Below are positions 12,743-40,256 of a stretch of 64,000 bases of DNA, piece by piece (positions within the stretch are counted from its first letter, which is position 1; each line of letters begins with the position of its first letter). The stretch covers positions 1 to 64,000 of the forward strand of contig JAHFUM010000005.1 of assembly GCA_023265135.1 (NCBI GenBank), given 5' to 3'. The DNA comes from Nitrosarchaeum sp. Its GTDB lineage: Archaea > Thermoproteota > Nitrososphaeria > Nitrososphaerales > Nitrosopumilaceae. A program made the translations under genes and the position numbers. The notes below the pieces were generated by a model. The model saw only the letters and a list, made by a program, of their open reading frames with translations. It was not told the DNA's origin and searched no databases.

Positions 12743-12764
12743 ATTGTTATTAATAAAACATATC

Positions 12765-16984: not shown

Positions 16985-17194
16985 TCAAATTCTTATCAAT
17001 TCGTTATAATCATCCATATTTAGATGAGTTTTATTTTTAGATTTTTCAACTGCATTAGTTGTTACAAAATGTAAATCTTCATCAGACTTGGCATCTTCTC
17101 TAGCAAATTCAAGCATTCTAATAAACAAAGGAACATCCATTTTGATTACGTCAACTGAATCTTTTCCTTCTTTAAGTTGCCTTAAAGTTGTCAT
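16985..17194 (-). CDS. Small head-block protein, 69 aa, possible capsid-targeted protein
   Basis: Starts MTTLRQLKEGKDSVDVIKMD; the N-terminus ends in LKE, a possible gp21 site. The core 'MDVPLFIRMLEFAREDAKSDEDLHFVTTNAVE' is a pattern I recall from small proteins between genes 21 and 22 in T4-like marine phages. It is encoded with one-base overlap after gp21. The role is probably prohead core or internal protein. Confidence 0.7.
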   Translation of the reverse strand: MTTLRQLKEGKDSVDVIKMDVPLFIRMLEFAREDAKSDEDLHFVTTNAVEKSKNKTHLNMDDYNELIRI

Positions 17195-17847
17195 TATTTG
17201 CCAAATTTAAGCATGAGTTTAGAAAATTCTTGGATGAACTTCTGTTCGTTAATTTTCTTTTTAACAACTTTATCTACTACTAATTCGATAATACGACCAT
17301 CAGCTGTCATCTCATATGATATATTTTCATTAAAATAGTTAGAAAAACATCCATTTCCACTAGGATCTGACACACAATCTATTGCACTAAACATCAAATC
17401 TTTTTGAACATATTTAATACCATCGTGTTCTTGCAATGAACCTAAAGCTCTAGTAGAAACACCAAGACGACCACCAGCATCAAGGATACCGATAACAATT
17501 TGTCCCATCGGCGTGCCCTCTGTAATTCTTGCCTTTCCATTATAATGTATATCTTGCTTAGTTAATTTTTCTACAACCATACATACACGTTCAGGATTAA
17601 TTTGAGGTGAAGGAGGATGGTTTAATTCACCTAGTGATCTTTTATTTGAAACATAATCATTAATATACTTAGTAGCAGCACCTTCAAGTATTTCTGGGAG
17701 ATATATGCGTCCATTCTTATTCATATCTTCTCTAACACCTCTGCGGCCGGCTTGCATGAAGCGACCCTCCAGAAAATGTTTTCTACCAGAAGCAGTTTCT
17801 TCTGTTAAAAGTTCGACATCATCAAAAACTTCGGTAATTAATTTCAT
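17194..17847 (-). CDS. 21: Prohead protease gp21
   Basis: 217 aa (T4 gp21 is 212), serine protease of the herpes-assemblin-like S77/S78 type. Catalytic His77 in GELNHPPS and Ser131 in GVSTRALGS. It cleaves scaffold, capsid and internal proteins after L-x-E or I-x-E. Its own N-terminus MKLITEVFDDVELLTEE carries such a site (LLTE|E), fitting self-processing. The protein is in the standard position between the gp67-like protein and gp22. Confidence 0.95.
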   Translation of the reverse strand: MKLITEVFDDVELLTEETASGRKHFLEGRFMQAGRRGVREDMNKNGRIYLPEILEGAATKYINDYVSNKRSLGELNHPPSPQINPERVCMVVEKLTKQDIHYNGKARITEGTPMGQIVIGILDAGGRLGVSTRALGSLQEHDGIKYVQKDLMFSAIDCVSDPSGNGCFSNYFNENISYEMTADGRIIELVVDKVVKKKINEQKFIQEFSKLMLKFGK

Positions 17848-26049: not shown

Positions 26050-26562
26050 TTAATCTTGGGTGGAGATGATATCTCCACCCAATTTCTTGGGCAGTCCGTG
26101 TGTAATATCCGTTGATGATGGGGTATTATAGAAAGTAGTAGTATATTTTCCCCTAGGTTTCCCATATAACTCTGTATGAGTTGATGGGGTTTTAGAATAA
26201 ACTACATGATGGATAATATATTTTCTATCACCGGTTGTTTTATTATGATGAGTTCTAAGATTTGATTTAATACTATGAATAGTTTGACCTTTTAAAGAAG
26301 GATGATCTCTAATTGCATCATCCAGTTCGGCCATTTTGCTTTCAAATAGGTTGAATTCAACAGAATCAGTTTCTTCCTTAATCTTATCAGGATCGTGTAA
26401 AAGTTTTCCCTGCATAGTCTTTTTAAAAGATGATTTTACAGAATCTTTTAATTTGCCTGAAACCTTCATAATATCTTTTACAGGAAAAAAGTCGTGAGCA
26501 ACATCTTTCAGTTTCTCCCCTTTTTGAGGTTTTACATCGTTATAGATATCTTTTAAACTCAT
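26050..26562 (-). CDS. Hypothetical basic protein, 170 aa
   Basis: Starts MSLKDIYNDVKPQKGEKLKD; Lys/His-rich with a C-terminal strand-rich part (HSIKSNLRTHHNKTTGDRKY, GKYTTTFYNTPSSTD). High basic content next to probable internal head proteins suggests it may be a DNA-associated virion protein, but no family is recognised. It overlaps the AT-hook gene by four bases. Confidence 0.55.
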   Translation of the reverse strand: MSLKDIYNDVKPQKGEKLKDVAHDFFPVKDIMKVSGKLKDSVKSSFKKTMQGKLLHDPDKIKEETDSVEFNLFESKMAELDDAIRDHPSLKGQTIHSIKSNLRTHHNKTTGDRKYIIHHVVYSKTPSTHTELYGKPRGKYTTTFYNTPSSTDITHGLPKKLGGDIISTQD

Positions 26563-27692
26563 TTTCTAGCAACCTTTTTAGCAATGTTGACAACCTTCTG
26601 CACTTTATCTTCCGACTCAGTAATTGATTCTTCAAGAGTATTTGTATATCTATTAGCAATTTGTAAAGCACCTTCAGCAGTCATAGATTTACCTGAAAAT
26701 AAAACTTGGTTATCTTCTGACATAACCGAATATTGATACATCAAACCATCTTTTTCAATTTCTACTGAATCATTGATAGGTCGCATACCTTCCTTTTTGA
26801 AATTTGGATTAGTCGGGTGCAGTTTAGAGAAATATCTCTTCTTGTTAGTTAAAGTGATGGTATGGCCACCTCTATTAGGATGCGCTTGAACTGATAAAAT
26901 TGACATTTCATTTAGATCAACATAGTGATGAGAATTTGCATCAACTTGGCGTGCACTTTCATCTAATTCAACAGACTCATGTTGCCATTTGCGAGAATTC
27001 TTGGCAAAGTTTGCCATTTTAACTACATGAGGTTCTTCTGAATTTAAACCTTTTTTAATATCATCTTGAGTAATAGCCTCATCTTCCCCTTTACCTAACC
27101 ATCTATGAAATGCACCTTTCTTAAGATGTAGTTCCATCGGTGCTCTTTCGTCTAACTCAACTTCTTCATATTCTTTAGTTGCGTCTGTTTCAGCTTCATC
27201 AATATCTTCTTTAAAATGCACTTTACGCAATTTTCCCTTCGGAAGAACCGCTTTCTTTCCACCAAATGACCATGTATTTAAAGCAGCATCATCAAACTTT
27301 TTGCCACCAAATTCAGTTTCCTTTGTTGGACGACCACGACCTCTTTTAACAGGTTGCTCACCCTGCTGACTACTACGATCTTCTGCTTTATCTATGCGTG
27401 TATCTAAATCATCGTCAATACCGGAAGTTGTAATTCCCATATTTTCACGATGAATTTCACCATGAGGATGTAGAGTATGTTTATACATCTGGCCTTTTTG
27501 GTCAACTGTTGTAAATGAGATTAAACCAGGTGAAAAGAATGGATCTTGAATGCGATACCCACGCATTTTATAACCTTGCATATATTGACTTCCATGCATA
27601 CGGAAATCTTCATCTAATTCTTCAACAGATTCTCTATAGTCTGTCGGTTTTTTTAATTTTGAAGATTCTACTAGTTCTTTAAATGTTTTCAT
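26559..27692 (-). CDS. Probable internal head protein with AT-hook and several protease sites
   Basis: 377 aa from MKTFKELVESSKLKKPTDYR (ATG at 27692 overlaps the previous stop as ATGA). The leader resembles T4 capsid-targeting sequences (MKTYQEFI-type) and ends in LVE|S. Further L-x-E sites occur in EELDE, VELDE (twice) and TLEE. Residues about 120-128 read KRGRGRPTK, an AT-hook for minor-groove DNA binding. The segment 'LKKGAFHRWLGKGEDE..T..DI' and 'MANFAKNSRKW' recurs in proteins of large phages. Likely packaged, processed by gp21 and DNA-bound. Confidence 0.7.
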   Translation of the reverse strand: MKTFKELVESSKLKKPTDYRESVEELDEDFRMHGSQYMQGYKMRGYRIQDPFFSPGLISFTTVDQKGQMYKHTLHPHGEIHRENMGITTSGIDDDLDTRIDKAEDRSSQQGEQPVKRGRGRPTKETEFGGKKFDDAALNTWSFGGKKAVLPKGKLRKVHFKEDIDEAETDATKEYEEVELDERAPMELHLKKGAFHRWLGKGEDEAITQDDIKKGLNSEEPHVVKMANFAKNSRKWQHESVELDESARQVDANSHHYVDLNEMSILSVQAHPNRGGHTITLTNKKRYFSKLHPTNPNFKKEGMRPINDSVEIEKDGLMYQYSVMSEDNQVLFSGKSMTAEGALQIANRYTNTLEESITESEDKVQKVVNIAKKVARK

Positions 27693-29029
27693 TTTAATCC
27701 CATCAATGTTTGTATTGAGTTTGAAAAAATATCTTTGTTCCACTTTATTCCTGCTTGAGTTGCCATATTAAACATTCTACCTAGCAATTCCCATCCAGGA
27801 TTTGTCAAATGCTCTTTTCTTAATGATGTAGCTGCATTATTAATTTCATTTTCTGGACTGGCACTAGTATTATTTATTATTCCTGCAGTTGAAGAAATAA
27901 CTCTAGCAATCATATTTCTATCAGTTGTGGTGAACTTCACATTTTCCATAACAGCATAGCGAAGTAAATCTTCTTCAATGACAGATATGAGAGCTTCCGT
28001 TAATTTAATAAGTCCAATTTTCTTTGAATATCTTCGAGCTCTTTCAGTTTGAATACGGACAACTGAAAAATTTTCAGTAATTGAGTTGTTATTACATCCT
28101 AAAAGATAATCAAGAGATTTAATATAGTTGAGTAAAGCATATGAATCATCAGTATTTTTGGCAATATCTTTAAATGATTCTGAAAGACTACGTGTAAAAT
28201 TCTTAGTTTTATATCCTTTAAATATAAAAGATTCTTTGTAGACTTGGTCTCTTTTTGGAGTGGCGTCAACTTCTTTTAATGTTTCTAACCAACACTTATG
28301 TTCAATTCCTTCAGAAACAATAGTTACATAATTAGAACCGCGCGCAATAATCTCCCCTTGTAACTCATCAGATTTTACAATATCTCCAATATTAAATATT
28401 TCTTCATCTAAATATTGTTCTCTAATAGTCTTTGGTTTAATGCGTGATTTAATTTTTTCCATAAGCTCATCAGCATCTTTATTAGAGATATTATGGTGAA
28501 GACCTTTTCTAAAATCTTGCTTTTTACCTGCAAGTGCTGCTTCACGCATTTTAGTGCCAGAAATTCCTTCTGCACCTTCTGCATCTGGATCTCTTACTCC
28601 AGCGGATTTTACATGAATTGATTTAAAGTTGTACCCATTGCCATTTTTATCAAATTTTCCATTATATGCATCTAACTTATCTTGAAATTCTTTAACTCTA
28701 TCTTCACCAGCAACTACTGTAAGATGTTTGATTCCCTCTCGGTGCATTCTAGCAGCTGCATGAAAGATAGTAGGTTCTTCTTTTGAAGATTGTCTGAAAA
28801 GTGCTTTGTGATTGGGATACATAGTATGAAGCATATGTATTTTTTCATCTGGTGTTAGCGGATTAGATTTGTTATCTTGAGTATGAGACACATACACCCT
28901 CTTGATACCTGGTTCCGCCAATGCTAAATCAACTACTTTGGCATGGCCTGAAGTTGGTGGATTTGCACGCATAAATGCTATAGTTCCTCTTTTTTCACTA
29001 ATTTCCATAAGTTGAGATACTTTTATCAT
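27689..29029 (-). CDS. Nucleotidyltransferase-like (NMNAT/cytidylyltransferase fold) protein, probably head-packaged
   Basis: 446 aa from MIKVSQLMEISEKRG; the start overlaps the stop of the upstream GIY-YIG gene (ATGA). The first 180 residues form a nucleotidylyltransferase Rossmann fold: GTIAFMRANPPTSGHAKVVD with TSGH in place of HxGH, 'VYVSHTQDNKSNPLTPDEKI' and GISGTKMREAAL (ISxTxxR motif). Substrate cannot be told from sequence. The remaining 265 residues have a KOW/SH3-like stretch (FNIGDIVKSDELQGEIIARG) and helices. The leader contains QLME|I, a possible gp21 site. Confidence 0.72.
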   Translation of the reverse strand: MIKVSQLMEISEKRGTIAFMRANPPTSGHAKVVDLALAEPGIKRVYVSHTQDNKSNPLTPDEKIHMLHTMYPNHKALFRQSSKEEPTIFHAAARMHREGIKHLTVVAGEDRVKEFQDKLDAYNGKFDKNGNGYNFKSIHVKSAGVRDPDAEGAEGISGTKMREAALAGKKQDFRKGLHHNISNKDADELMEKIKSRIKPKTIREQYLDEEIFNIGDIVKSDELQGEIIARGSNYVTIVSEGIEHKCWLETLKEVDATPKRDQVYKESFIFKGYKTKNFTRSLSESFKDIAKNTDDSYALLNYIKSLDYLLGCNNNSITENFSVVRIQTERARRYSKKIGLIKLTEALISVIEEDLLRYAVMENVKFTTTDRNMIARVISSTAGIINNTSASPENEINNAATSLRKEHLTNPGWELLGRMFNMATQAGIKWNKDIFSNSIQTLMGLK

Positions 29030-29850
29030 AAATAATACCACCCTAATTTTCTAGGAGTTTTTCCTATATCTAACCTCGAAAAAAGATTACATCTATCAGC
29101 ACGCATTCTTGTAATAATTATATCTGAATTTTTCAAAATATTATGAAGACCTTCAGGTGATATATTTAAATGAGTATTAGCAAAATTTTCAGCCGAACTA
29201 TATATGCCATGAGGTGTAACTATAGTTTTTCTGTTAGGATTGTTCAAACTAACTAATCTTTTTGTTTTATTACTGCATTTTTTCCCTAAACGATCTGTGT
29301 TACCTTTTTTATTTTTTGATTGTCTTTCCTTAAACTCACCAGTATGATGTTTACCATAAAATCCATTATCTTTTCCAAATCTTATATGAGTTTCGCCAAA
29401 ATTTGCTAGACAATTATATTTTTTTGGCACACCTTTTTGGCGTTTTGATTTTTTTTCACTCTGTTTTAATTTCCACTCATCACCTAAGTATGTATTTATA
29501 TATTCTCTTGTAATTCTAGGAGGCTGAGTTCCACCTTCACATCTATTAGTTAAAATGCCATTTTCATCTAATCTAATTCTGCCATAAGAACTTATAATTA
29601 TTTTTTCAAAATTTAATGCTTCATTATTAGTTAAATTTTTTGCATAATATACAATAGTAGGTTCAAGATCTTTACTATAAAGATTCTTAACTATAGCAGT
29701 TTTGAAACTATTTTCTTTACTGTTAGTGTTTAAATGAGTAGATGATCTTCTACCACATCCTTTTCCAACATAAAATGGTAAACATGTAATTGGATTAATT
29801 AATCCATACACATAAAATTTATCATTTTCTATAACTTTTGTTTTAATCAT
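29026..29850 (-). CDS. GIY-YIG homing endonuclease
   Basis: 274 aa. N-terminal GIY-YIG domain: KFYVYGLINPITCLPFYVGK, GCGRRSSTHL, and the catalytic Glu region NEALNFEKIIIS; then NUMOD3-type repeats (GKDNGFYGKHHTGEFKERQS) and a C-terminal NUMOD1-like DNA-binding part (GIYSSAENFANTHLNISPEG). It is inserted between the ligase-like and nucleotidyltransferase-like genes and overlaps the latter's start by four bases, so it supplies that gene's ribosome site (AGGGTGG). Confidence 0.85.
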   Translation of the reverse strand: MIKTKVIENDKFYVYGLINPITCLPFYVGKGCGRRSSTHLNTNSKENSFKTAIVKNLYSKDLEPTIVYYAKNLTNNEALNFEKIIISSYGRIRLDENGILTNRCEGGTQPPRITREYINTYLGDEWKLKQSEKKSKRQKGVPKKYNCLANFGETHIRFGKDNGFYGKHHTGEFKERQSKNKKGNTDRLGKKCSNKTKRLVSLNNPNRKTIVTPHGIYSSAENFANTHLNISPEGLHNILKNSDIIITRMRADRCNLFSRLDIGKTPRKLGWYYL

Positions 29851-31064
29851 TAATCTCTGGATTTCTCAAAATTTTTCTTACTAAATTCTTTTCTATCGAC
29901 TAACTTTACAGGTATACTTTTATGAGAGAATACATACCCCTCAGGATGTGATTTTTCACCTTTTATTGTATGCTCAAGAGGATGATCTGCTTTATCTAAA
30001 ACATGAACTAATGTATTTTTTGCTTGTTGTAGATGATGATGCATATTTAAATAATTATCAAAATGTTGCGAGTTATTCCAAACATGACTAGCTAAAGCAT
30101 GATGAGTATTAATTTTAACTTCCTTAGCTTTTTCAGTTTTTACTTTTGCCGCTAAATTTTGACCATGATTTATAATATGATGTTGTAAACCTTCCACAGT
30201 AGGTTTAGTATCTTCTCTAACTGTTTTATTTATATATGTTCCTAAATGATCTTTTACAGGTTCTACGGCATGATACATCTCATGCCCACCTTGCTTATGT
30301 ATCTTTTCTGCTTTTGCCATGTGTTCTTTAAAGTTATGTTTATCTTGTTCGTGATAATTTGCTTTACTAGTATCATTAGCAGTACTCAAATTATACGCAT
30401 CTTCATGATGTTTTAACTCCTCATGTTTAACAGGAGCAGAATGAATTCCCCCACTTGGATGTGGATGATATGCGGTATGAAATGAAATACCTAACTGAGC
30501 TTTTTCAATCTTCTTACCTTCTTGAGTATTTTTATTTGCTGCATATTTTATTGTATTAGGTGTAAATGATACTTTATTGCCTTCATCATGTTTTGAATGT
30601 TTATCAAAAAGCATATCACCTTGATATATTCCATGTTTAGGTAGAATTTTATGTGCATGATCTAAGACAGATTTCATCTTATCTTTAAGGTATGGTTTAT
30701 CTCCAAAATGTTTATCAATATCAGCATGAGAGTATGAAAGTTTTGTTTCTTTTTCTCCACCTATATGTTTGATTGCACCTTTATATCCAACAAAAAACTT
30801 ACCAGAATGTGGATGATGGCCTGCAACAATGCTAACTCCACCATCAATTTTAGTAGTTAAATTTGAATTATGTGCACCATGTTCAATATGAGATGCTGCA
30901 TCATGAAGTGCAGAAATTGCGTGTTCACCACCTGCATGGCCATATTCATGGCCTAGATCTTCTACGTGACTTAAATGAGTAATATGTTGAGTATTCTCAG
31001 CCATAGACTCATTTAATTGGGCTGGAAATAAAATATCAGATAAGAAAGTTTTGAATGACTTCAT
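29850..31064 (-). CDS. Ligase-like covalent nucleotidyltransferase, probably head-packaged
   Basis: 404 aa, His-rich. Motifs of the DNA/RNA ligase fold in order: I TKIDGG (K72, D74, G75), III GIYQGDMLF (145-153), IV EGYV (375-378) and V VKLVD (386-390). The spacing between III and IV is unusually long (about 220 residues) and contains a His/Lys-rich insertion. It resembles uncharacterised ligase-like proteins of T4-like phages (I believe DUF6267). The N-terminus MKSFKTFLSDILFPAQLNES looks like a capsid-targeting leader with LNE|S. Activity (nucleic-acid ligation or capping) is inferred only. Confidence 0.68.
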   Translation of the reverse strand: MKSFKTFLSDILFPAQLNESMAENTQHITHLSHVEDLGHEYGHAGGEHAISALHDAASHIEHGAHNSNLTTKIDGGVSIVAGHHPHSGKFFVGYKGAIKHIGGEKETKLSYSHADIDKHFGDKPYLKDKMKSVLDHAHKILPKHGIYQGDMLFDKHSKHDEGNKVSFTPNTIKYAANKNTQEGKKIEKAQLGISFHTAYHPHPSGGIHSAPVKHEELKHHEDAYNLSTANDTSKANYHEQDKHNFKEHMAKAEKIHKQGGHEMYHAVEPVKDHLGTYINKTVREDTKPTVEGLQHHIINHGQNLAAKVKTEKAKEVKINTHHALASHVWNNSQHFDNYLNMHHHLQQAKNTLVHVLDKADHPLEHTIKGEKSHPEGYVFSHKSIPVKLVDRKEFSKKNFEKSRD

Positions 31065-31080: not shown

Positions 31081-32121
31081 TTATTTAATTATTGTCTCTG
31101 AGTTGGCGACTGGGCGTTTACTTCTTATTTCTAATAAATGTAGAGTTTTACCTTCATGATTTTTTATACGTAATAGATTGCCATTACCACTAGATTGCTC
31201 AAATTTAAGTTTTCCAGCGCCTTGCAATTGCTTTTTCATAGATTCATTTTCATTTTTAATCGTTGTTGTATTTTTTGAAGGTATTGTTGCGGCTTGATAT
31301 GTTGGATATGTATGTTTTGGTGCAACAAAATGCGAAATTCTTGCCTTTTGTTCTGAATCAGGTAAAGATTCAAGATGTTTTTTAATAACTTTAACTTTAT
31401 TTGCTGCATGTTTATAAGAAGATTTTCTAATTTTATTTGCCATAGTTTGGCCGGCTTCAGTTTTATGGTCTCTGCTAGCTTTAAATGCAATATGTTTTTG
31501 TGCTTCAGACATTTTATCTGCATCATGTCCATGTTTTTTTAAAATATCTGATACTTCTTTTTTATGATTCTCATCGTATTTAGCCATCATCCCATGTTTC
31601 AGACCTAATGCGTTTTCTGTTGTTGTAGAACCAGTTTGACCCGTTGTAATTTTATTATTAGCAATTTTCAGAGAATATCCTACTGCGTGATGCAATTCAC
31701 CAGTTTTTTTATCATTGCTGGAAATCATTATATCGGCGCCACCGGCGTGAGCTTCATCTTTTTTACCGGTTAATTTTTCATGGTCTGATTTAAGTGAAGT
31801 CCAAGAAACTCTAGTATGATGTTGTGGATTTAATATTTCTGGATGATGAGTTTTAAGATGTTCATGGATAACTTCGGCGGCCTGTTTTGCATGTGCATGA
31901 GCACGTTGATATTCTTGGTCTGATATATTTTTAACTAATTCATTATGTGCTTCATGCGGAGTTCTATTTTTCTCATCTCTAAAATGTTCTGCATGAGCTA
32001 ATTTACCATGAATTAATCTATTTAAATGAGCTGAGGTTAAGAGTTCATGAATTTTTCCTCTAGAATCATTATCTAAAGGAACCGTCTCCGATTCAGTTAA
32101 CCATTCTTTAAACGTAATCAT
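31081..32121 (-). CDS. Probable head-packaged protein, possible PD-(D/E)xK nuclease-like
   Basis: 346 aa, starting MITFKEWLTESETVPLDNDS, a capsid-targeting-like leader with LTE|S. Very rich in His and Lys. Residues about 125-165 read GGADIMISSND...AVGYSLKIANNK, a strand-D, strand-S-x-K pattern seen in some divergent restriction-like nucleases; this is suggestive, not proof. No other motif is recognised. It sits between the ligase-like gene and the 127-aa gene. Confidence 0.5.
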   Translation of the reverse strand: MITFKEWLTESETVPLDNDSRGKIHELLTSAHLNRLIHGKLAHAEHFRDEKNRTPHEAHNELVKNISDQEYQRAHAHAKQAAEVIHEHLKTHHPEILNPQHHTRVSWTSLKSDHEKLTGKKDEAHAGGADIMISSNDKKTGELHHAVGYSLKIANNKITTGQTGSTTTENALGLKHGMMAKYDENHKKEVSDILKKHGHDADKMSEAQKHIAFKASRDHKTEAGQTMANKIRKSSYKHAANKVKVIKKHLESLPDSEQKARISHFVAPKHTYPTYQAATIPSKNTTTIKNENESMKKQLQGAGKLKFEQSSGNGNLLRIKNHEGKTLHLLEIRSKRPVANSETIIK

Positions 32122-32131
32122 TTAGTAACTC

Positions 32132-32515
32132 CTATATCTTGCTATCTACATAATTATTAGTTAATTTTTTAGCTGCATGGTGAGGAATTCCAAATTCATC
32201 TGCAATTTTTGAATGTGCATTAGTTACATGAGTTCCTAAAGTATCAGCATCTATTTTACCAGCTTTATATGCTTTGATGTGTTTGTTTAAATGTTCACCT
32301 ATCGAGGCGTGAAGTTCAGACATCTTGCTTTCATCTAGTGATTTAGATGTCAAATATTCTTTAAATGACATAACCGATTCCTTGTGCATTCCATAATATG
32401 CACCTTGAGCCATTTTAATACGTTCTTCTTTAGATTTTCCAGCGAACTTTGGATTATCTGAGTGAACAAAATCATGAATTATTTGATCTATACTAGTTGC
32501 TTTAGTTATTGGCAT
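32132..32515 (-). CDS. Probable internal head protein, 127 aa
   Basis: Residues 7-45 contain 'IDQIIHDFVHSDNPKFAGKS' and KEERIKMAQGAYYG, a block found in several phage structural or internal proteins. It is followed by MSFKEYLTSKSLDESK, a second MKTFKE-like element with LDE|S, so the two parts may have been joined. The C-terminal half is helical with a His cluster (GIPHHAAKKL). Start codon and ribosome site GAAGGAGA lie inside the upstream GIY-YIG gene. Confidence 0.6.
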   Translation of the reverse strand: MPITKATSIDQIIHDFVHSDNPKFAGKSKEERIKMAQGAYYGMHKESVMSFKEYLTSKSLDESKMSELHASIGEHLNKHIKAYKAGKIDADTLGTHVTNAHSKIADEFGIPHHAAKKLTNNYVDSKI

Positions 32516-33272
32516 TACTTTCTCCTTCTATATGAGCTTTTCCTTTAATATGATTCGTCCAATTTGATTTTTGAATATGTCTATTACAACATTTACAAAA
32601 TATCTTTTCCTCATTTTTCTTTGAGTTGCTTAATTTACATTTTTGTTCGGCAGCCCAATTTTTACCTTTAAATCTCTTAGACATTTCAACTTTTCTGTCT
32701 GGTGAGTTATCCCATGATTTTTTAATTTTCATTTTACTAATTTCACTTACGCATTTTTCATAATTTGGGTTATCCTCACCTTTTAATCCAAACATGGGAT
32801 TATTTTTACCTGAAACATTAGCATGATTTAATATCATTTTTAATCTAATTTCAGATTTATTGGTATATTTACCTTTATAATTTGGGTTATTTTCTCCTGC
32901 AGATAGTCCTCGTTTTATTCTAGTTTCACTTAATTTATTTTTAATTTCGTCAGTCATGATAATATTTCTGAATGCACCGAATTTACTATTTAACCAGTAT
33001 ACCCTCTTGTCTTTGGGTATACTTAGTAACACATTATCTTCCCATGTTTTAGCTTTAAATGGTGTATTAAATATTTTTCTAACTTGTATTATATCAGGGT
33101 CACCATTAAGTTTTCTAAAATCATTAACTTTTGAAGAAGATGTAAAATATGTTGTCCATAAGTCATTTGGATTGCAACCTTTAGCATATCTAACTCCATA
33201 ATACCATTTATTTAATAACGACCATCCTATTAAGTATGTATAAGGTATATAATCTTCTGCATAAATATTCAT
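32502..33272 (-). CDS. GIY-YIG homing endonuclease downstream of terminase
   Basis: 256 aa from ATG at 33272, chosen for its AGGAG seven bases upstream; a longer open frame has no ribosome site. N-terminal 'YTYLIGWSLLNKWYYGVRYA' followed by 'DLWTTYFTSSSKV' is a GIY-YIG variant known from phage Seg-like enzymes. Then NUMOD3 repeats (GENNPNYKGK, SGKNNPMFGLKGEDNPNY) and a C-terminal C2H2-like element (CKCCNRHIQKSNWTNHIKGKAH). It overlaps the next gene by 14 bases. Confidence 0.85.
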   Translation of the reverse strand: MNIYAEDYIPYTYLIGWSLLNKWYYGVRYAKGCNPNDLWTTYFTSSSKVNDFRKLNGDPDIIQVRKIFNTPFKAKTWEDNVLLSIPKDKRVYWLNSKFGAFRNIIMTDEIKNKLSETRIKRGLSAGENNPNYKGKYTNKSEIRLKMILNHANVSGKNNPMFGLKGEDNPNYEKCVSEISKMKIKKSWDNSPDRKVEMSKRFKGKNWAAEQKCKLSNSKKNEEKIFCKCCNRHIQKSNWTNHIKGKAHIEGESNANN

Positions 33273-33342
33273 GCTGGTACTCCTGTTTGAGTTGTAAGTG
33301 CTAGAGATAGTGCAGACTGCGAATCTGGCGACTATCAAATAT

Positions 33343-35082
33343 TTATTGTAAACTCCATCCATACTCATCTACTGACGAGACTATAGTATCATCATAAAAC
33401 TCATTCCCATCAGAAAATCCAGGCATCAATAAACTCTCTTCCATTTGACGTATATGTTCCGCATGTAAAGTTGATCTAATATTTGTATCAGTTAAATCTC
33501 TAAACCATGGTTGGGATGCCATCCACGCATATAACCATAAAGTTGCCACTGTATCATCATGAAATCCTTCATCTGCTTCATATCCACCATTATCTTTTTG
33601 AATAAAAGTGCTTAACTCCTGTATCATATCATAATCATTAATTATAATTTGATTATTATCTATCATATCTTTAAGATTTGCACAACCTATTCTTTTTGTC
33701 TTTTTTGTCGTACGGATTCCGGGGTAAGGATCTGCACCTTTTTTACCTAACATATCACCTGATTTAGTCCAAAATATTTCCAAATATTCTAAGTCGTTCC
33801 ATAAAGTTTCTGCTACCTGCGCACCAATATCATTTATTTCAACTAGAATATATGCTTCATTATAGTTTCGAGAAATTTTGTGAACTAATGATGCATACAA
33901 CATAGGAGCTATTTCATTGTTTCTATAAGTAGCAACGATTCTATGAGGATAGTCTGTTATATCAAATACCGTAAATGCTGAATAATCTAAGTGTCGTCCT
34001 CTACTTACATCAACTGTTACAGTATATTTATGATTCTTCTCAGGGTATGCATAAATCTTCAAACCCTTCTCTTGATCCGCAAATTCCTTAATGGGTTTAT
34101 CAAATACTAGTCTAGCCAATGTTGCACCAGTTAACAATGTCTTGCTGGAACCAATAAACTCTGCATCCAATTCTTGAGCTGCCTTAAGTTCACCAAGAAC
34201 TGCTTTTTGTTCATTATACCATTTTTGATCTCTACCAGGAGTTTCATACCAATGAACTCTCAGAGGAAAGAAACCATTACCACCAGGTTCACCATTAAGT
34301 GTTTTATTTGCTTCAATCCAAAACTTATGGAAATGGTTATACCCATGAGGTGTAGAAGTCATAAATACTTTAGAATCTTTACCAGCAGTAATTGTTGGAT
34401 ATACTGATGTAAAGAACTCTTCCGCCTGATTATTTTCAACGAATGCAAATTCATCCAGATACAAAATATTAACAGATCCACCACGATTACCAGAACTTGA
34501 AGTTGCCTGACCGTAAACAGTTGACCCATTTTCAAGTTCAATAGTTCTTTTATTCCAAGTTTTCACACCCTGTTGCAACCATATTGGCAAATTTTCATAT
34601 GCTCTACGAACACGACTCATAATTTCATCAGCAGTTTTCTGCTTGTTTGCAAAGATTGCAACAGATTTATTATCACTAAATAAAATAAACCATACAAAAT
34701 ATGCAGCACTGACGGTAGTATTATGATGTAACAATCCTTCTGCATAGTAGGTGTGGTTTCCGGTCACCGATAAATCAAACATGGATTCTGGTTGTCTCTC
34801 GACCTCAACAGATATAACCTCTTCAAATCCGTATTGACCTATTATTTTTTGCCCAACGTGCAAATCTTTAACAAATATTTGATTGTGAAATTCATCGAAT
34901 ATTATATGATTATCAGCACATTCTATTGAGCATGTCGTTGTTTTTAAAGACCACACGGTGTACGGCACAGTGACATTTAGGTGGGTTATATCAACCCATC
35001 CATCTTCGGTTTCGATTTGTAAATCGCTTATGTTAAATGTTTCAATAAATTTACGATTTACTGAGTCAGAAAGTTCAGGCAT
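33343..35082 (-). CDS. 17: Large terminase gp17, C-terminal part, preceded by a C-terminal split-intein half
   Basis: 579 aa: 121 residues of intein, then 458 residues of terminase starting TTVSAAYFVW. Terminase parts: Walker B VNILYLDEFAF, coupling motif STPHGYNHF, and the RNase H-like nuclease residues in TVDVSRGRHLDYSAF, ILVEINDIGAQ and EEGFHDDTVATLW, matching T4 gp17 D401, E458 and D542. The Walker A lysine is encoded in the other fragment (35977-36393), so this chain alone cannot bind ATP normally. Trans-splicing would give a 554-aa terminase (T4: 610). The start lies inside the endonuclease gene with a weak ribosome site. Confidence 0.93.
   Translation of the reverse strand: MPELSDSVNRKFIETFNISDLQIETEDGWVDITHLNVTVPYTVWSLKTTTCSIECADNHIIFDEFHNQIFVKDLHVGQKIIGQYGFEEVISVEVERQPESMFDLSVTGNHTYYAEGLLHHNTTVSAAYFVWFILFSDNKSVAIFANKQKTADEIMSRVRRAYENLPIWLQQGVKTWNKRTIELENGSTVYGQATSSSGNRGGSVNILYLDEFAFVENNQAEEFFTSVYPTITAGKDSKVFMTSTPHGYNHFHKFWIEANKTLNGEPGGNGFFPLRVHWYETPGRDQKWYNEQKAVLGELKAAQELDAEFIGSSKTLLTGATLARLVFDKPIKEFADQEKGLKIYAYPEKNHKYTVTVDVSRGRHLDYSAFTVFDITDYPHRIVATYRNNEIAPMLYASLVHKISRNYNEAYILVEINDIGAQVAETLWNDLEYLEIFWTKSGDMLGKKGADPYPGIRTTKKTKRIGCANLKDMIDNNQIIINDYDMIQELSTFIQKDNGGYEADEGFHDDTVATLWLYAWMASQPWFRDLTDTNIRSTLHAEHIRQMEESLLMPGFSDGNEFYDDTIVSSVDEYGWSLQ
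34720..35082 (-). other. C-terminal half of an atypical split intein (121 aa)
   Basis: Residues 1-121 of the protein. Block B-like SIECADNHIIFDEF (His59), block F SVTGNHTYYAEG and block G LLHHN, with the conserved penultimate His, terminal Asn and +1 Thr. Block B sits in this half, whereas in usual split inteins it belongs to the N-terminal half. This is the early-split layout I know from the AceL-TerL intein. All residues needed for C-terminal cleavage and extein attack are present. Confidence 0.9.
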
Positions 35083-36026
35083 TTTTGTATAATGTTCTCT
35101 TTATTTTGTTTATAATCCGACTCCCAAATCACTAGAACCTCATATCCTCTATCTTTGGCAAATTGTATTTTCTCTAAATCTAATATCCACTTTTCTCCAG
35201 CAGTCATATGTAATCTAGTATTGTATTTAGTGGATTCCCATAATATTGGGTTGCAATGCCAAAAATCTCCATTGTATTCTATTATTTTATTTCCACGTTC
35301 AATGTCGTAAATATAATATTTCTTATTTCCGCGATTTAATTGAAACTGGTCATTTACATAAATTTCATTTTCTTTTAAAATCTGTATTATTTCTTTTTCT
35401 GCTTTAGATATTGCGCCATTGCGACTGACTTTCATACGATTTATTCGTCTCTTTTCATCCTCTGGCTTCAAATTTAACGTATTTTGCCATTTTTCAATTT
35501 TATTCGCATGTCGTATTGGGCCTTCAATTTCTCCAAATTTCTTTATGAACCATGCTAAATCCCGAGTTTGAGCTTTTGAGAATTCTTCGACGGATCCATA
35601 ATATTCTCGCGTAAATGGATTGCTTCCATTCCTCTTGCGCATTTCTCCTTGTTTCTTCAATATAGATTTTCTTGTCTCTTCATCCTTATAATGCACAAAC
35701 TTTTTACTAAACGGACTTAATTTACCACCATGACCGTATGCCGGATTGTTTTCGCCGCTACTATTGTCAATAAGTTTCTGGCATTTTAGCGGTCGTTGTA
35801 GTTCATTATCTGGGTGATACCTTCTATAATGACTACTTAAATCTTTTGCGTGGGTTCCACATATTTTACAGGACAAATAATCAATGCCTTCTATCCCATC
35901 TAAGATTCTATTTTTCCTGCGAATTTCAGACCAACATGACGGACTACATACCTTCGCAGATGAACCCATAAACTCTTTACTGCAATTCCCGCAAACTATC
36001 ACCTTCAAACGTTTTTTTCCACGCAT
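35058..36026 (-). CDS. EDxHD (Vsr-like) homing endonuclease between the two terminase halves
   Basis: 322 aa. Two N-terminal zinc-binding elements (VCGNCSKEF...VCSPSCW; CKICGTHAKDLSSHYRRYH), a middle NUMOD-like region (GENNPAYGHGGKLSPFSK), and a C-terminal Vsr-like core: KAEKEIIQILKENEIYVNDQ, YYIYDIERGNKIIEYNGDFW with HCNP, then YEVLVIWESDY. This is the endonuclease family described for fractured, split-intein genes. It overlaps the N-terminal terminase fragment by 50 bases and the C-terminal fragment by 25, so the three cistrons are interlocked. Confidence 0.88.
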   Translation of the reverse strand: MRGKKRLKVIVCGNCSKEFMGSSAKVCSPSCWSEIRRKNRILDGIEGIDYLSCKICGTHAKDLSSHYRRYHPDNELQRPLKCQKLIDNSSGENNPAYGHGGKLSPFSKKFVHYKDEETRKSILKKQGEMRKRNGSNPFTREYYGSVEEFSKAQTRDLAWFIKKFGEIEGPIRHANKIEKWQNTLNLKPEDEKRRINRMKVSRNGAISKAEKEIIQILKENEIYVNDQFQLNRGNKKYYIYDIERGNKIIEYNGDFWHCNPILWESTKYNTRLHMTAGEKWILDLEKIQFAKDRGYEVLVIWESDYKQNKENIIQKCLNFLTQ

Positions 36027-36393
36027 ATAATTCTCCTAAGGTACACTCAAAAATCTCTTGTGTGGATTTTTGTTTAAGTCTTACCTTAGTATTTATCGAA
36101 AGGCATTTTCCTTGTTGACGACTGGTAAGAAAGATTACACGTTTATTTTTATGATAAGCTTTAATCATCTTTTCCTGATACTTGTAAAGATCAAACTTCA
36201 CAATACCTTTATCAGGATGAACTACGTAAATGTACTTTTTAATGAAGTATACTGGATCATTTTTACACTTTTTATACTCATCAACCATTTCCTGAGTATA
36301 TTCGACAACTGCACCAGCTGGTCGCAGTTTCGTATTCCCTCTGAAAGAGAATGTATTTAAAAATTCTAAAATTGACTCAGGAATTTTAAACAT
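35977..36393 (-). CDS. 17: Large terminase gp17, N-terminal part, ending in an N-terminal split-intein half
   Basis: 138 aa. Residues 1-96 match the gp17 ATPase N-terminus, ending in the adenine-binding 'YKYQEKMIKAYHKNKRVIF' and the start of Walker A, SRQQGK. Residue 97 is Cys, where the intein begins; T4 has SRQLGKTT here, so the intein splits the P-loop exactly between GK and TT. With the other half this restores SRQQGKTTVSAAY. It is preceded by the 83-aa gene and small terminase gene 16. Confidence 0.93.
   Translation of the reverse strand: MFKIPESILEFLNTFSFRGNTKLRPAGAVVEYTQEMVDEYKKCKNDPVYFIKKYIYVVHPDKGIVKFDLYKYQEKMIKAYHKNKRVIFLTSRQQGKCLSINTKVRLKQKSTQEIFECTLGELYAWKKTFEGDSLRELQ
35980..36105 (-). 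other. N-terminal half of an atypical split intein (42 aa)
   Basis: Residues 97-138: CLSINTKVRLKQKSTQEIFE is a clear intein block A with catalytic Cys1. The half stops before block B, which is instead found in the other protein. The last dozen residues are read from DNA shared with the endonuclease start in another frame, so some of the tail may be dispensable. Confidence 0.9.
36090..36097 (-). promoter_or_regulatory. Late-promoter-like GATAAATA inside the terminase N-fragment
   Basis: Minus strand GATAAATA within codons of intein block A, 64 bases before the endonuclease start. The first base departs from the consensus and it lies in coding sequence, so this may be chance; it could serve the endonuclease and gp17-C cistrons. 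Confidence 0.25.
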
Positions 36394-37272: not shown

Positions 37273-38033
37273 ATCATTTCCTTAATATTTTCTACTATTA
37301 TATATGTATCATTTTTATTAGCTGTAATAGGGTCAACTTTAATTTCTATCTCAACTGTATCAGTATTAAATGTTTTATCTTCACTAAGTGAAATGATAAT
37401 ATCTTTAATAATTCCAGTAGAACCAATGAGTGGTCCAAAGAAGTCCATTTGAGCTGAAAATGTAAAAGTTTGTTGAACTATGCGAAGTTCTTCTGGTGAA
37501 GTATCATAAGTATCTACTTGTTCATATGATTGAAGTAAGATTGGAACATCTTTAAATATCTTAAATTCAGGCAGAATTTCAAAATTTAAAGATAAATACG
37601 GTTGAAAAAATGGGACAATTTGTTCCATTATTTGTTGTGAATGTTGTTGATCTTTTGTATAACTACGCAACTGTATGATAACATCATAAGGCACCGGATT
37701 GAAGATTTTACTCCTCATATTACCAATGGAACCAACAGCATATGAACCATTAACTCCAACTTTTCTGGTTGGGTCATATTGAATATCTACAATTTCGTAA
37801 GACATACGTGGTAATGTAATTTGAACTTGTTGAGCAGTTAAATCTGGTTGCTCTCGTTGACGAGATATCCACTTATTTTTAGGACCATATTCAATTTCTA
37901 CCGGATAATCTTGTAGTCTGTTACCATTCTCATCTCTTTTTATTATTGAGAGACCTTCGAATAGTTCACCAAATGCTACTAAAAACCTCTTTATTGTTGA
38001 ATGATAAAAATGATGTTTAAATAGAGATGACAT
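37269..38033 (-). CDS. 15: Tail terminator / sheath stabiliser gp15
   Basis: 254 aa (T4 gp15 is 272). It caps the tail and joins it to the head. 'FKHHFYHSTIKRFLVAFGEL' parallels T4 'FGYFYNSSFRRYATLMGDLF'; 'QVQITLPRMSYEIVDIQYDP' and 'MEQIVPFFQPYLSLNFEILP' are further matches. Its start codon lies within the end of the upstream HNH gene (17-base overlap), and no good ribosome site is visible, so translation may depend on that gene. Confidence 0.92.
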   Translation of the reverse strand: MSSLFKHHFYHSTIKRFLVAFGELFEGLSIIKRDENGNRLQDYPVEIEYGPKNKWISRQREQPDLTAQQVQITLPRMSYEIVDIQYDPTRKVGVNGSYAVGSIGNMRSKIFNPVPYDVIIQLRSYTKDQQHSQQIMEQIVPFFQPYLSLNFEILPEFKIFKDVPILLQSYEQVDTYDTSPEELRIVQQTFTFSAQMDFFGPLIGSTGIIKDIIISLSEDKTFNTDTVEIEIKVDPITANKNDTYIIVENIKEMI

Positions 38034-38829
38034 TTAACTGAATTATTTCGTTAATTTTAGCGTTTATCCATTCATTTGAGCGAAGATGCCAACCTTTTCC
38101 TAATTTAACTTTACTTTTTGAACTACTGAATAAATTTTTCAATACTTTTACATTTTCACGTAAAGATAGTTTTAAAGTTTGGCCCGGATTACTGTTCTTC
38201 ATTCTATTAATATTTTTATCAGATTGAAAATTATGCATACCATTTTTTGATAAACTTATTTGTCTGTTAGATTGTTTTTCTTTATTTTCTTTTTTAAATA
38301 ATGGGTTATTTTTCTTAAATTTTTCTCTGAGAATAGATTTACCTAAGTCACTTTTAGCCCAAAATAAATTATTATCAATTAAATATTGTTGCCTAATTTT
38401 CATTCTCTTACTATTAGCTCGTCTTAATTTAACATCTTGAAAAGAATGTTCATTATTTTTAACCATTATTTTTATCATATTTAATTGATCTGATCTAACA
38501 TTTTCATATACTTTGCTAGATTTTATCCTTCCTTTACACATTCTAAAAAATGCTGTGGATTGACTACCTTTATATATTTTCCATAACATCCAATGAGCAA
38601 TATAATGTTGTCTTCTGGTTAAAATTGCAATATTCCAAGGATTATATTTAAAAGAATTATACTCAGAAAATAAATCTTTAGCTTTAGGGCAGATATGATG
38701 CTTTTCTACATTTTCTAAATCTAATCGGTTGTTTTTAATGCAATATTCAATAAACTTAATATATCTATTAAGATAGTGCGAGTTAAGAGATTTACTGGAA
38801 AGTATTGAATAAATATCTATGCTGGTCAT
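38017..38829 (-). CDS. HNH homing endonuclease between genes 14 and 15
   Basis: 270 aa. The HNH core is near the N-terminus: LNRYIKFIEYCIKNN, then VEKHHICPKAKDLF and NPWNIAILTRRQHYIAHWML, the layout of T4 Mob-type enzymes. The rest is Lys/Asn/Ser-rich with short repeats (KKNNPLFKKENKEKQSNR, GMHNFQSDKNINR) resembling NUMOD3. Ribosome site AGGAG precedes ATG. It breaks the 14-15 gene pair. Confidence 0.88.
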   Translation of the reverse strand: MTSIDIYSILSSKSLNSHYLNRYIKFIEYCIKNNRLDLENVEKHHICPKAKDLFSEYNSFKYNPWNIAILTRRQHYIAHWMLWKIYKGSQSTAFFRMCKGRIKSSKVYENVRSDQLNMIKIMVKNNEHSFQDVKLRRANSKRMKIRQQYLIDNNLFWAKSDLGKSILREKFKKNNPLFKKENKEKQSNRQISLSKNGMHNFQSDKNINRMKNSNPGQTLKLSLRENVKVLKNLFSSSKSKVKLGKGWHLRSNEWINAKINEIIQLNVISI

Positions 38830-38929: not shown

Positions 38930-39679
38930 TTAGATATCAAATGGATTATTTACTGTAAATTTAATTTGTTCTGCAGGAGGATTAAACTCTGTACCATAAT
39001 CTCTAATAGGTGCAGGTGTATTTCCATCTTCTTTAACTAAATATCCACCTTGTTCAAATTCCAATGAATTATTATTTTGTAGTATAATTTGGTTTTCCAA
39101 TATATCTTTAGAGTTGAGACTAAATAAGTCAATAACTGCATTACCTGTTTCGATAACTTCATTTTGATATTGGAATGCTTCGCATGATAGATAATATTGA
39201 TAGTTTCTACCTAACGAGTAAAATTCAATATCATGATCTACAAACTTCACCTCCACCAAATATTTAGTTAAAGGATCATATATAAGATCACCTTCTCTAG
39301 GTCTAATATAGTTATTAATGGTAAAATTTGCTTCACCATTTAAAAGATTACTATCAAATTGCGATTTTATTTCCTCTTCCCAGCGTTCCTTATGCACAAC
39401 TAGTTTAAAACTATTTCGTATTTCTAAACCAAATTTGGCAAACATTTCACGATCACCAGTAAAACCGGTAGCATCGACTAAGTACATTTCAATAGGTATA
39501 GCAATACTAAACTTTGATATAATATCTTCACCCAAAATTAAATCTTCAATCTGAACATCTCTTGGAAGATAAAAATATTCATGTCCTTTTATCTGAATAG
39601 TTTCTTTAATAAAACCACTCATCATATTTTGTTCTAAAATATTAGATTTATGAAAATATTTATTTACTATACTAGTCAT
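38930..39679 (-). CDS. 14: Neck protein gp14
   Basis: 249 aa (T4 gp14 is 256). Head-completion/neck protein joining portal and tail. 'MMSGFIKETIQIKGHEYFYL' with PRDVQIEDLILGEDIISKF parallels T4 'VAESIQMRGVELYYVPREYV..DLIFGEDLKNKF'; 'REGDLIYDPLTKYLVEVKFV' and 'FYSLGRNYQYYLSCEAFQY' match further on. It follows the GNAT-like gene with an eight-base overlap. Confidence 0.93.
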   Translation of the reverse strand: MTSIVNKYFHKSNILEQNMMSGFIKETIQIKGHEYFYLPRDVQIEDLILGEDIISKFSIAIPIEMYLVDATGFTGDREMFAKFGLEIRNSFKLVVHKERWEEEIKSQFDSNLLNGEANFTINNYIRPREGDLIYDPLTKYLVEVKFVDHDIEFYSLGRNYQYYLSCEAFQYQNEVIETGNAVIDLFSLNSKDILENQIILQNNNSLEFEQGGYLVKEDGNTPAPIRDYGTEFNPPAEQIKFTVNNPFDI

Positions 39680-40256
39680 TTTTACTAAATACTAATCTGT
39701 GATGTTGAATTCCAGTTTTTAAATATTTGCCTTCTGGTTTTATTGCATACTTTTTTTGATTTTCTGGTGATGTTATATCACCTTCATGCGGTATTATTTT
39801 GCCATCATCTTCTATATGTGTTTTTACTCCTGGTTTTTTTGCCAGATTTTGCAACATTTTATGTGCACCATGTTCTGTATTCGACGTATCTGATTCCAGT
39901 GTATGACCATGTTGTATTAGATGGTGTAGGACATCTACCATCAATCCTTTATGTTCTATTGGAGTTCCCTCAGAATCATGTTTATCCCTGGCAATATAAG
40001 TAATGGACAATCTGCCAGATTTTGTTGGTTTTTCATGTTCAATCGAACCCACAGTGCCACCGTGTTCATCTTTCACAAAAGTATAATGATTACCTTTTTT
40101 CTTATGTTTGTAATGAGTTATAGTATACTTTCCAACTTTTCCTAATTCAGTTTTATTAAAATCTTCATGCTCTATGTCACCTTCGTGTATTCTTGGTGGA
40201 GTGTGAGTATCCTTTGTTATTTTATACTCCAAAAGATATTCTTTAAATGTTTTCAT
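39672..40256 (-). CDS. GNAT-like protein with capsid-targeting-like leader
   Basis: 194 aa, starting MKTFKEYLLEYKITKDTHTP; leader ends LLE|Y, a gp21-type site. The core has an acetyltransferase-like order of strands and helices: SGRLSITYIARDKH, GLMVDVLHHLIQHGHTLESD, then TEHGAHKMLQNLAKKPGVKT, resembling small phage GNAT-like proteins ('SD....GG.KMW..L.K'). The acetyl-CoA Q/RxxGxG/A loop is not clear, so activity is uncertain. His/Lys-rich, like the probable packaged proteins at 26-32 kb. It lies between the lysis genes and gene 14. Confidence 0.6.
   Translation of the reverse strand: MKTFKEYLLEYKITKDTHTPPRIHEGDIEHEDFNKTELGKVGKYTITHYKHKKKGNHYTFVKDEHGGTVGSIEHEKPTKSGRLSITYIARDKHDSEGTPIEHKGLMVDVLHHLIQHGHTLESDTSNTEHGAHKMLQNLAKKPGVKTHIEDDGKIIPHEGDITSPENQKKYAIKPEGKYLKTGIQHHRLVFSKND

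What the first reader, a model, noticed from the sequence alone, without database searches (positions are those of the whole stretch)
29850..31064. Ligase-like protein with a large His-rich insertion and a capsid leader
Motifs I (KIDG), III (GIYQGDMLF), IV (EGYV) and V (VKLVD) appear in order, but about 220 mostly His/Lys-rich residues separate III from IV, much more than in standard ligases. This could be a nucleic-acid ligase, a capping-type enzyme or an AMPylating enzyme delivered with the DNA.
Basis: partly seen in the sequence, partly recalled or inferred. Interest (0 to 1): 0.68.

Follow-up and report, generated by a model that had tools for sequence, protein, structure and literature searches.

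The report
Phage ligase-fold enzyme with packaging tag
A widespread but unexplained family of virus proteins (DUF6267) looks like a very divergent relative of the enzymes that seal breaks in RNA and DNA, and in this phage it carries a tag like the one T4 phage uses to load proteins into its head for injection, so it may be an enzyme delivered to the host with the viral DNA.

Summary
The ORF is real: 29850-31064, minus strand, 404 aa, full-length Pfam DUF6267 (E 1.9e-70), an unassigned family of T4-like phages (243 phage records; >=586 IMG/VR stretches). KxDG (K72), QGD (D150), EGxV (E375) and K387 are invariant in 62 relatives. Two AlphaFold2 models (pLDDT 91-92) rank ligases and capping enzymes at the top of the PDB (short member: ranks 1-13), although no single hit is significant (best E 0.044). 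Profile comparison with T4 Rnl1 aligns motifs IV-V, above 60/60 shuffles but at only 4% HHalign probability. I infer a divergent covalent nucleotidyltransferase.

The long III-IV spacing is family-wide. The His-richness is not in an insertion: it covers the whole protein and marks the leader-bearing proteins of this phage. The leader MKSFKTFLSD resembles T4's capsid-targeting sequence; the same contig has it on an Alt-like ADP-ribosyltransferase. It recurs on 29/80 relatives and on 21/55 of a neighbouring HIGH-family nucleotidyltransferase, a gene fused or downstream in 57/80 loci. That partner's homologues are in cyanophage virions by mass spectrometry; DUF6267 itself was not listed.

Most likely: a head-packaged nucleic-acid-sealing enzyme used at infection onset. 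Substrate, catalysis and packaging are untested.

The parts
29850..31064 (-). DUF6267 gene, 404 aa, predicted divergent ligase-fold (covalent nucleotidyltransferase) protein
   Evidence: Pfam PF19782 E 1.9e-70 over 2-375/376; AF2 pLDDT 91.4, pTM 0.88; PDB fold search
31008..31064 (-). Capsid-targeting-like leader, residues 1-19: MKSFKTFLSDILFPAQLNE (possible prohead-protease site after LNE, by analogy only)
   Evidence: Same pattern in 29/80 relatives; near-identical MKSFKEFIKSE on Alt-like ART at C3:76526-77293 of the same contig
30840..30851 (-). Motif I KIDG, residues 72-75; predicted nucleophile K72 at the end of a beta-strand
   Evidence: Invariant K, D, G in 62/62; strand 68-72 in the model
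30606..30632 (-). Motif III-like GIYQGDMLF, residues 145-153
   Evidence: Q148 and D150 invariant; strand 145-154
29994..30350 (-). Helical insertion, residues 239-357, between the motif IIIa-like and motif IV strands
   Evidence: Four helices in the model; shorter in short members
29931..29942 (-). Motif IV EGYV, residues 375-378
   Evidence: E375, G376, V378 invariant; aligns with T4 Rnl1 E227
29895..29909 (-). Motif V-like VKLVD, residues 386-390 (K387 aligned with T4 Rnl1 K240; V389 in place of K242)
   Evidence: K387 and R391 invariant; profile alignment
27689..29041 (-). Partner gene: HIGH-superfamily ('cytidyltransferase'/NMNAT-like) nucleotidyltransferase
   Evidence: phrog_395 E 1.5e-54; fused or downstream of DUF6267 in 57/80 loci
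29026..29850 (-). GIY-YIG homing-endonuclease-like gene sitting between DUF6267 and its partner in this phage
   Evidence: PF22945 3.5e-6; phrog_314 homing endonuclease
31081..32121 (-). Neighbouring leader-bearing, His-rich (9.0%) protein MITFKEWLTE..., family unknown
39672..40256 (-). Second leader-bearing, His-rich (10.3%) protein MKTFKEYLLE..., family unknown
17194..17847 (-). gp21-type prohead protease, the type of protease that in T4 trims packaged proteins
   Evidence: phrog_207 head maturation protease 5.5e-48

Best explanation
The protein is a highly divergent member of the covalent nucleotidyltransferase (ligase and capping enzyme) fold. A capsid-targeting-type leader loads it into the phage head, and it enters the host with the DNA. 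There it most likely becomes adenylylated on K72 and uses the AMP to seal or otherwise join nucleic-acid 5' ends at the very start of infection, together with the neighbouring HIGH-family nucleotidyltransferase and, in related phages, packaged kinases and a HAD phosphatase-like protein. Shown by computation here: family membership (DUF6267), invariant motifs, fold resemblance, leader recurrence, gene linkage and natural fusions. Inferred: catalysis, AMP as the donor, packaging of this particular protein, and nucleic acid as substrate. My component estimates: ligase fold about 0.85; leader is a packaging signal about 0.8; nucleic-acid joining about 0.45.
For: Fold: model of the full protein gives ligases in nine of the top eleven PDB hits. 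Model of a 291-aa relative gives covalent nucleotidyltransferases (Naegleria RNA ligase, T4 Rnl2, DNA ligases, tRNA ligase, mRNA capping enzyme) in ranks 1-13. In the viral library a phage RNA ligase follows the family's own members at prob 0.99, E 3.1e-3. Motifs invariant and in ligase order, IV-V spacing 12 against 13 in Rnl1. Core-profile comparison with T4 Rnl1 and with Rnl1 and Rnl2 sets beats all 60 column shuffles and aligns motifs IV-V with T4 Rnl1, and motif I with Rnl1-like proteins. Packaging: leader on 29/80 DUF6267 and 21/55 partners; on an Alt-like ADP-ribosyltransferase of the same contig. T4 uses such a leader to load internal proteins (PMC3012670). In S-SZBM1 the only one of 117 scanned CDSs with the leader is the partner enzyme, and it is in the virion by mass spectrometry (PMC9146016). 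The partner family is in S-SM1 and S-CREM2 virions (PMC3037559, PMC10665884). Nucleic-acid role: leader-bearing neighbours in relatives include P-loop kinases (AAA_33; phrog_505 polynucleotide kinase) and HAD proteins (phrog_415 polynucleotide kinase, E 3.6e-5), the enzyme types of RNA end healing.
Against: No single PDB fold hit reaches significance (best E 0.044, prob 0.60, TM about 0.3); HHalign probability is only 3-4%; sequence search of the PDB finds no ligase. Motif III has QGD instead of GE, and motif V lacks the second lysine (V389). This phage also encodes an ordinary RNA ligase (C3:96382-97422), so a generic sealing role is partly redundant. DUF6267 was not listed in the S-SZBM1 virion proteome, though that copy has no leader; no protein directly before the partner is listed for S-CREM2 either, but I did not locate its DUF6267 copy. 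Many cyanophage members have no leader. The kinase and HAD hits are weak and could mean nucleotide or NAD metabolism instead.
Confidence: 0.45

Rival explanations
1. NAD+-coupled adenylylating enzyme: the protein takes AMP from NAD+ and releases NMN, which the fused or adjacent NMNAT-like partner turns back into NAD+. The pair would be a self-recycling, head-delivered unit.
For: Partner fused or downstream in 57/80 loci, two natural one-ORF fusions plus the S-PM2 arrangement. Partner's weak PDB hits include NadR and NMN adenylyltransferases. Motif V has a single lysine, which from general knowledge resembles NAD+-dependent LigA more than ATP ligases.
Against: No detectable LigA domain Ia; LigA comparison gives nothing. 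The phage already has NadV and NadM elsewhere. The best partner hit in the PDB is UPF0348 MJ0951, not an NMNAT, and all those hits are marginal (E 0.002-0.9). In 14 loci with at least 2 kb downstream no partner is found.
Confidence: 0.15
2. Capping-type or protein/small-molecule-modifying enzyme: it transfers NMP from K72 to RNA 5' ends or to a host protein without joining strands, as an Alt-like takeover factor.
For: Capping enzymes are among the fold hits (8p4a, 3rtx). The packaged company includes an Alt-like ADP-ribosyltransferase, a host-takeover enzyme. Motif V is not of the standard ligase form.
Against: RNA and DNA ligases outrank capping enzymes. No OB-fold C-terminal domain typical of cellular capping enzymes follows motif V, only a helix.
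Confidence: 0.2
3. Non-catalytic descendant: a ligase-fold internal head protein that only binds DNA or helps ejection.
For: Short cyanophage members and split ORFs exist; the His-rich composition is shared by leader-bearing proteins of unrelated sequence in this phage.
Against: K72, D74, G75, K95, D150, H196, E375, K387 and R391 are invariant in 62 of 62 relatives, which is what catalysis, not mere binding, usually preserves.
Confidence: 0.1
4. The leader is a chance or assembly-unrelated N-terminus and the protein acts only inside infected cells.
For: Leader-less members are common (51/80) and the gene lies among replication genes in cyanophages. DUF6267 not listed in the S-SZBM1 virion proteome.
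Against: Recurrence across divergent relatives, partners and kinases, and on an Alt-like enzyme in the same contig; of 106 ORFs of 90 aa or more in this contig only four matched the leader pattern.
Confidence: 0.15

Closest known systems
Pfam DUF6267 (PF19782) / phrog_455 / T4-like gene cluster 71
   Same: Full-length match, all invariant residues, same linkage to the cytidyltransferase gene (T4-GC190)
   Different: Family has no assigned function; cyanophage members have low His and usually no leader, whereas this branch is His-rich with a leader
T4 RNA ligase 1 (Rnl1, PF09511) and T4 RNA ligase 2 (Rnl2, PF09414)
   Same: Motif I KxDG as in Rnl1, motif IV EGYV in both, motif V first lysine, motif order, IV-V spacing close to Rnl1; fold search hits Rnl2
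   Different: No significant sequence similarity; QGD for motif III; second motif V lysine absent; 120-residue helical insert; unusual conserved N-terminal HxxHxED
Naegleria gruberi RNA ligase (5cou, 6vte)
   Same: Top PDB fold hit of the short member (prob 0.60, E 0.044)
   Different: Not significant alone; from general knowledge it has an N-terminal OB domain that DUF6267 lacks
T4 Alt and internal proteins IPI-IPIII (capsid-targeting-sequence proteins)
   Same: N-terminal M-x-x-F/Y-x-x-F/Y-I/L-x-E type leader, prohead protease in the same phage; the Alt-like protein on this contig has it too
   Different: The known T4 packaged proteins are ADP-ribosyltransferases and restriction inhibitors, not ligase-fold enzymes (PMC3012670 and general knowledge)
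Virion-associated NMNAT/cytidylyltransferase of cyanophages (S-SM1, S-SZBM1, S-CREM2, S-SCSM1)
   Same: The partner gene here is of the same kind (phrog_395); reported in virions
   Different: Those reports name only the partner; I found no report linking it to DUF6267 or to the leader

Membership tests
DUF6267 (PF19782) | Match above the curated cut-off over the whole profile | tested here: met
   238.5 bits against a cut-off of 27, positions 2-375 of 376
Covalent nucleotidyltransferase superfamily (ligases, capping enzymes) | Motif I KxDG with invariant lysine | tested here: met
   K72, D74, G75 in 62/62; also invariant in 12 members, 11 of them from named phages
Covalent nucleotidyltransferase superfamily (ligases, capping enzymes) | Motif IV (D/E)Gxh and lysine of motif V, in order after motif III | tested here: met
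   E375, G376, V378, K387 invariant
Covalent nucleotidyltransferase superfamily (ligases, capping enzymes) | Motif III acidic residue in (F/Y)xGE | tested here: inconclusive
   QGD with invariant D150 instead of GE
Covalent nucleotidyltransferase superfamily (ligases, capping enzymes) | Motif V KxK (second lysine) | tested here: not met
   V389 (55/62), I or N otherwise, aligned with T4 Rnl1 K242
Covalent nucleotidyltransferase superfamily (ligases, capping enzymes) | Same fold | tested here: inconclusive
   Top PDB hits of two models are this superfamily, but no single hit is significant and coordinates could not be superposed
T4 Rnl1 (PF09511) or Rnl2 (PF09414) family proper | Significant profile match | tested here: not met
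   No such Pfam hit at E 10 for 12 members; HHalign probability 0.3-4%
NAD+-dependent DNA ligase (LigA) | Domain Ia and significant profile match | tested here: not met
   HHalign probability 0.1% with E. coli LigA
T4-type capsid-targeting-sequence protein | Leader sequence | tested here: met
   MKSFKTFLSD; near-identical to the Alt-like protein of the same contig
T4-type capsid-targeting-sequence protein | Presence of the trimmed protein in the virion | not testable with these tools
   No virion of this phage is available; in S-SZBM1 the leader-less copy is not listed

The most novel reading that the evidence does not exclude
A head-packaged, NAD+-consuming nucleic-acid-joining enzyme whose fused or neighbouring NMNAT-like partner regenerates its cofactor, forming an injected, self-recharging repair unit that is widespread in T4-like marine and freshwater phages.
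Probability: 0.1. Interest if true: 0.85.

Novelty: new variant of a known kind. Interest (0 to 1): 0.56.

Why it matters
DUF6267 is present in at least 243 sequenced phage records and hundreds of environmental contigs, usually next to a gene whose product is repeatedly found in virions without explanation. If both are injected enzymes, these phages deliver a ready-made nucleotidyl-transfer kit before any phage gene is expressed, as T4 does with Alt. That would give a testable function to one of the commonest 'hypothetical' proteins of ocean phages, and a very divergent ligase branch with possible biotechnological use.

Tried and rejected
1) Close-relative scan with the single protein in IMG/VR: no hits; the alignment query worked. 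2) PDB sequence searches for DUF6267: only chance matches on the helical insert. 4) The first partner profile contained the S-PM2 row, which begins with a DUF6267 C-terminus, so its 96% HHalign match to DUF6267 is an artefact, and the first linkage count (56/80) was repeated with a clean profile (57/80; shuffled control 0). 5) Arfaptin and other weak Pfam hits judged chance. 6) LigA homology: none. 7) HAD neighbour against PDB: none. 8) Literature: no paper in the library names DUF6267; the NAD+/ADPr survey (PMC9503650) does not mention the pair in the passages read. 9) Leader versus virion presence in S-SZBM1: right direction but a single positive, Fisher p 0.06. 10) The idea that the His-rich stretch is a domain inserted in a ligase: rejected by composition.

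Full report
What is there. The feature is a single open frame on the minus strand, 29850-31064, 404 aa. Its neighbours show a T4-like phage: gp23-type major head protein (14322-15659, phrog_138), gp21-type head protease (17194-17847, phrog_207), and terminase, portal and tail genes by eye. The contig (C3, 104,347 bases) is binned in a 1.8 Mb genome that carries archaeal AmoA, so the bin is an ammonia-oxidising archaeon and the phage contig is probably misbinned; only this one of 300 genomes of the phylum has a DUF6267 gene, and in 84,980 genomes a scan found the family on only 38 scattered contigs of unrelated taxa, most of them metagenome bins, as expected for phage DNA.

Family. The protein is a full-length DUF6267 (PF19782, E 1.9e-70) and phrog_455. 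tblastn finds relatives in 243 phage records, nearly all T4-like cyanophages, annotated almost throughout as hypothetical. At least 586 IMG/VR stretches encode relatives, the nearest at about 40% identity. In an alignment of 62 proteins the invariant residues include H30, H33, E35, K72, D74, G75, K95, Q148, D150, P169, H196, N279, K349, E375, G376, V378, K387, R391, F394 and N398. The spacing between motifs III and IV is a family trait (224-251 residues in long members, 157-171 in short ones; T4 Rnl1 68, T4 Rnl2 105).

Fold. AlphaFold2 with 62 natural sequences gave pLDDT 91.4, pTM 0.88: K72 ends a strand, motifs III, IV and V lie on or beside strands, and residues 239-357 form a helical block. 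Foldseek against the PDB puts DNA and RNA ligases in nine of the first eleven places, though with E 0.17-1.2. To reduce the disturbance from the helical block I modelled a natural 291-aa member (pLDDT 92.4): ranks 1-13 are all ligases or a capping enzyme, best Naegleria RNA ligase (E 0.044, prob 0.60). No single hit is significant, and the hits are related to each other, so this is one observation made twice, not thirteen. In the viral library a phage RNA ligase is the first named outsider (E 3.1e-3, prob 0.99). Profile comparison places 'PEGFVAvd..G.avKLV' on T4 Rnl1 'iegyvavmkdgshfkik' and 'TtKWDGAPAI...GkFFVgTKSvF' on Rnl1-like 'eKyDGtli...gevv..TrgtF'; scores of the core profile against T4 Rnl1 and the Rnl1 and Rnl2 sets exceed all 60 column-shuffled controls, but T4 Rnl2 alone does not, and HHalign's own probability is only 3-4%. 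Taken together I put the fold at about 0.85. The second lysine of motif V is replaced (V389), so catalysis cannot be taken for granted.

Leader. The N-terminus MKSFKTFLSDILFPAQLNE fits the T4 capsid-targeting type (the T4 consensus itself is from general knowledge); T4 uses that leader to load internal proteins (PMC3012670). The internal control is strong: on the same contig, C3:76526-77293 encodes an ADP-ribosyltransferase (PF03496 2.6e-20, phrog_802 Alt-like) with MKSFKEFIKSE. Alt is the classical injected enzyme of T4. Among IMG/VR relatives the pattern is on 29 of 80 DUF6267 proteins, 21 of 55 partner proteins and on some neighbouring kinases and HAD proteins. In S-SZBM1 only one of 117 scanned genes has the pattern, the cytidylyltransferase, and it is in the virion; the adjacent DUF6267 (SSZBM1_141) has no leader and is not listed. 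That is one case, but it points the same way.

His-richness. His is 12.4% over the whole protein and not concentrated in the insert. In the window the four most His-rich minus-strand ORFs are three leader-bearing proteins and a fourth with a leader-like sequence at an internal Met (29853 12.4%, 39675 10.3%, 31084 9.0%, 32135 7.9%; median 1.6%), and the Alt-like protein has 9.4%. In the relatives leader-bearing ORFs have more His (median 3.1 against 1.7%, p 4e-7; members of one family are not independent). So His-richness goes with the putative packaged set in this lineage; why is unexplained.

Partner. A HIGH-superfamily nucleotidyltransferase gene (window 27689-29041) is fused to, or lies downstream of, DUF6267 in 57 of 80 loci; 14 loci with at least 2 kb downstream lack it. 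L030 and L082 are single-ORF fusions, and S-PM2 has a split arrangement in which the DUF6267 C-terminus runs into the partner. In this window a GIY-YIG endonuclease gene separates them (29026-29850). Members of the partner family are reported in virions of S-SM1, S-SZBM1, S-CREM2 and S-SCSM1, with some authors' own caution about carry-over. The phage also has NadV and NadM, so the partner is probably not its only NAD-type enzyme.

Mechanism. I favour a head-packaged enzyme that becomes adenylylated on K72 and joins nucleic-acid ends early in infection. Steps shown by computation: motifs, fold resemblance, leader, linkage. Steps inferred: adenylylation, joining, substrate, injection. Against it: non-canonical motif V, an ordinary RNA ligase elsewhere on the contig, and absence from the published proteome checked. 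Rivals are an NAD+-coupled unit, a capping or protein-modifying enzyme, a non-catalytic internal protein, and a leader without packaging role.

Novelty. The family is catalogued but unexplained; no paper in the searched library uses its name. I rate it a new variant of a known kind: ligase-like in fold and motifs, not a member of Rnl1, Rnl2 or LigA by profile tests, and with a packaging leader not, to my knowledge, described on such an enzyme.

Noticed in passing
C3:76526-77293 minus (beyond the window; L259:12526-13293): Alt-like ADP-ribosyltransferase with leader MKSFKEFIKSE and 9.4% His, likely a packaged host-takeover enzyme.
   Followed up: partly
window 31084-32121, 39675-40256, 32135-32515, 26053-26562: Several unrelated proteins of unknown family that are unusually His-rich; two carry the leader at their first Met, one at an internal Met. 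His-richness seems to mark the packaged set of this phage lineage; reason unknown.
   Followed up: partly
G000:C3 (104,347 bases) in a 1.8 Mb bin with AmoA: A T4-like phage contig lies in the bin of an ammonia-oxidising archaeon; probably misbinned. C17 has an Rnl1-like ligase and a second ATP ligase hit and may belong to the same or another phage.
   Followed up: partly
C3:100896-102278, 102368-103414, 96382-97422: NadV, NadM (NMNAT-Nudix) and a canonical RNA ligase in the same phage.
   Followed up: partly
window 33343-36393: Large terminase gene interrupted by intein-like and homing-endonuclease-like sequence; further homing-type endonuclease-like genes by eye at 12744-14240, 20517-21539, 29026-29850, 32502-33368 and 38017-38829.
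   Followed up: no
L014, L015, L021, L022, L026, L027, L048: In relatives the partner is a fusion of HIGH-nucleotidyltransferase with a P-loop (AAA_33 or zeta-toxin-like) kinase, similar in layout to NadR.
   Followed up: partly
L057:1261-1860, L063:4464-5045: Adenylate kinases with the packaging-type leader next to DUF6267.
   Followed up: partly
L028:3031-3513, L029:6784-7248: Small leader-bearing proteins MKNYFDFLKES... of unknown function next to the partner gene.
   Followed up: no
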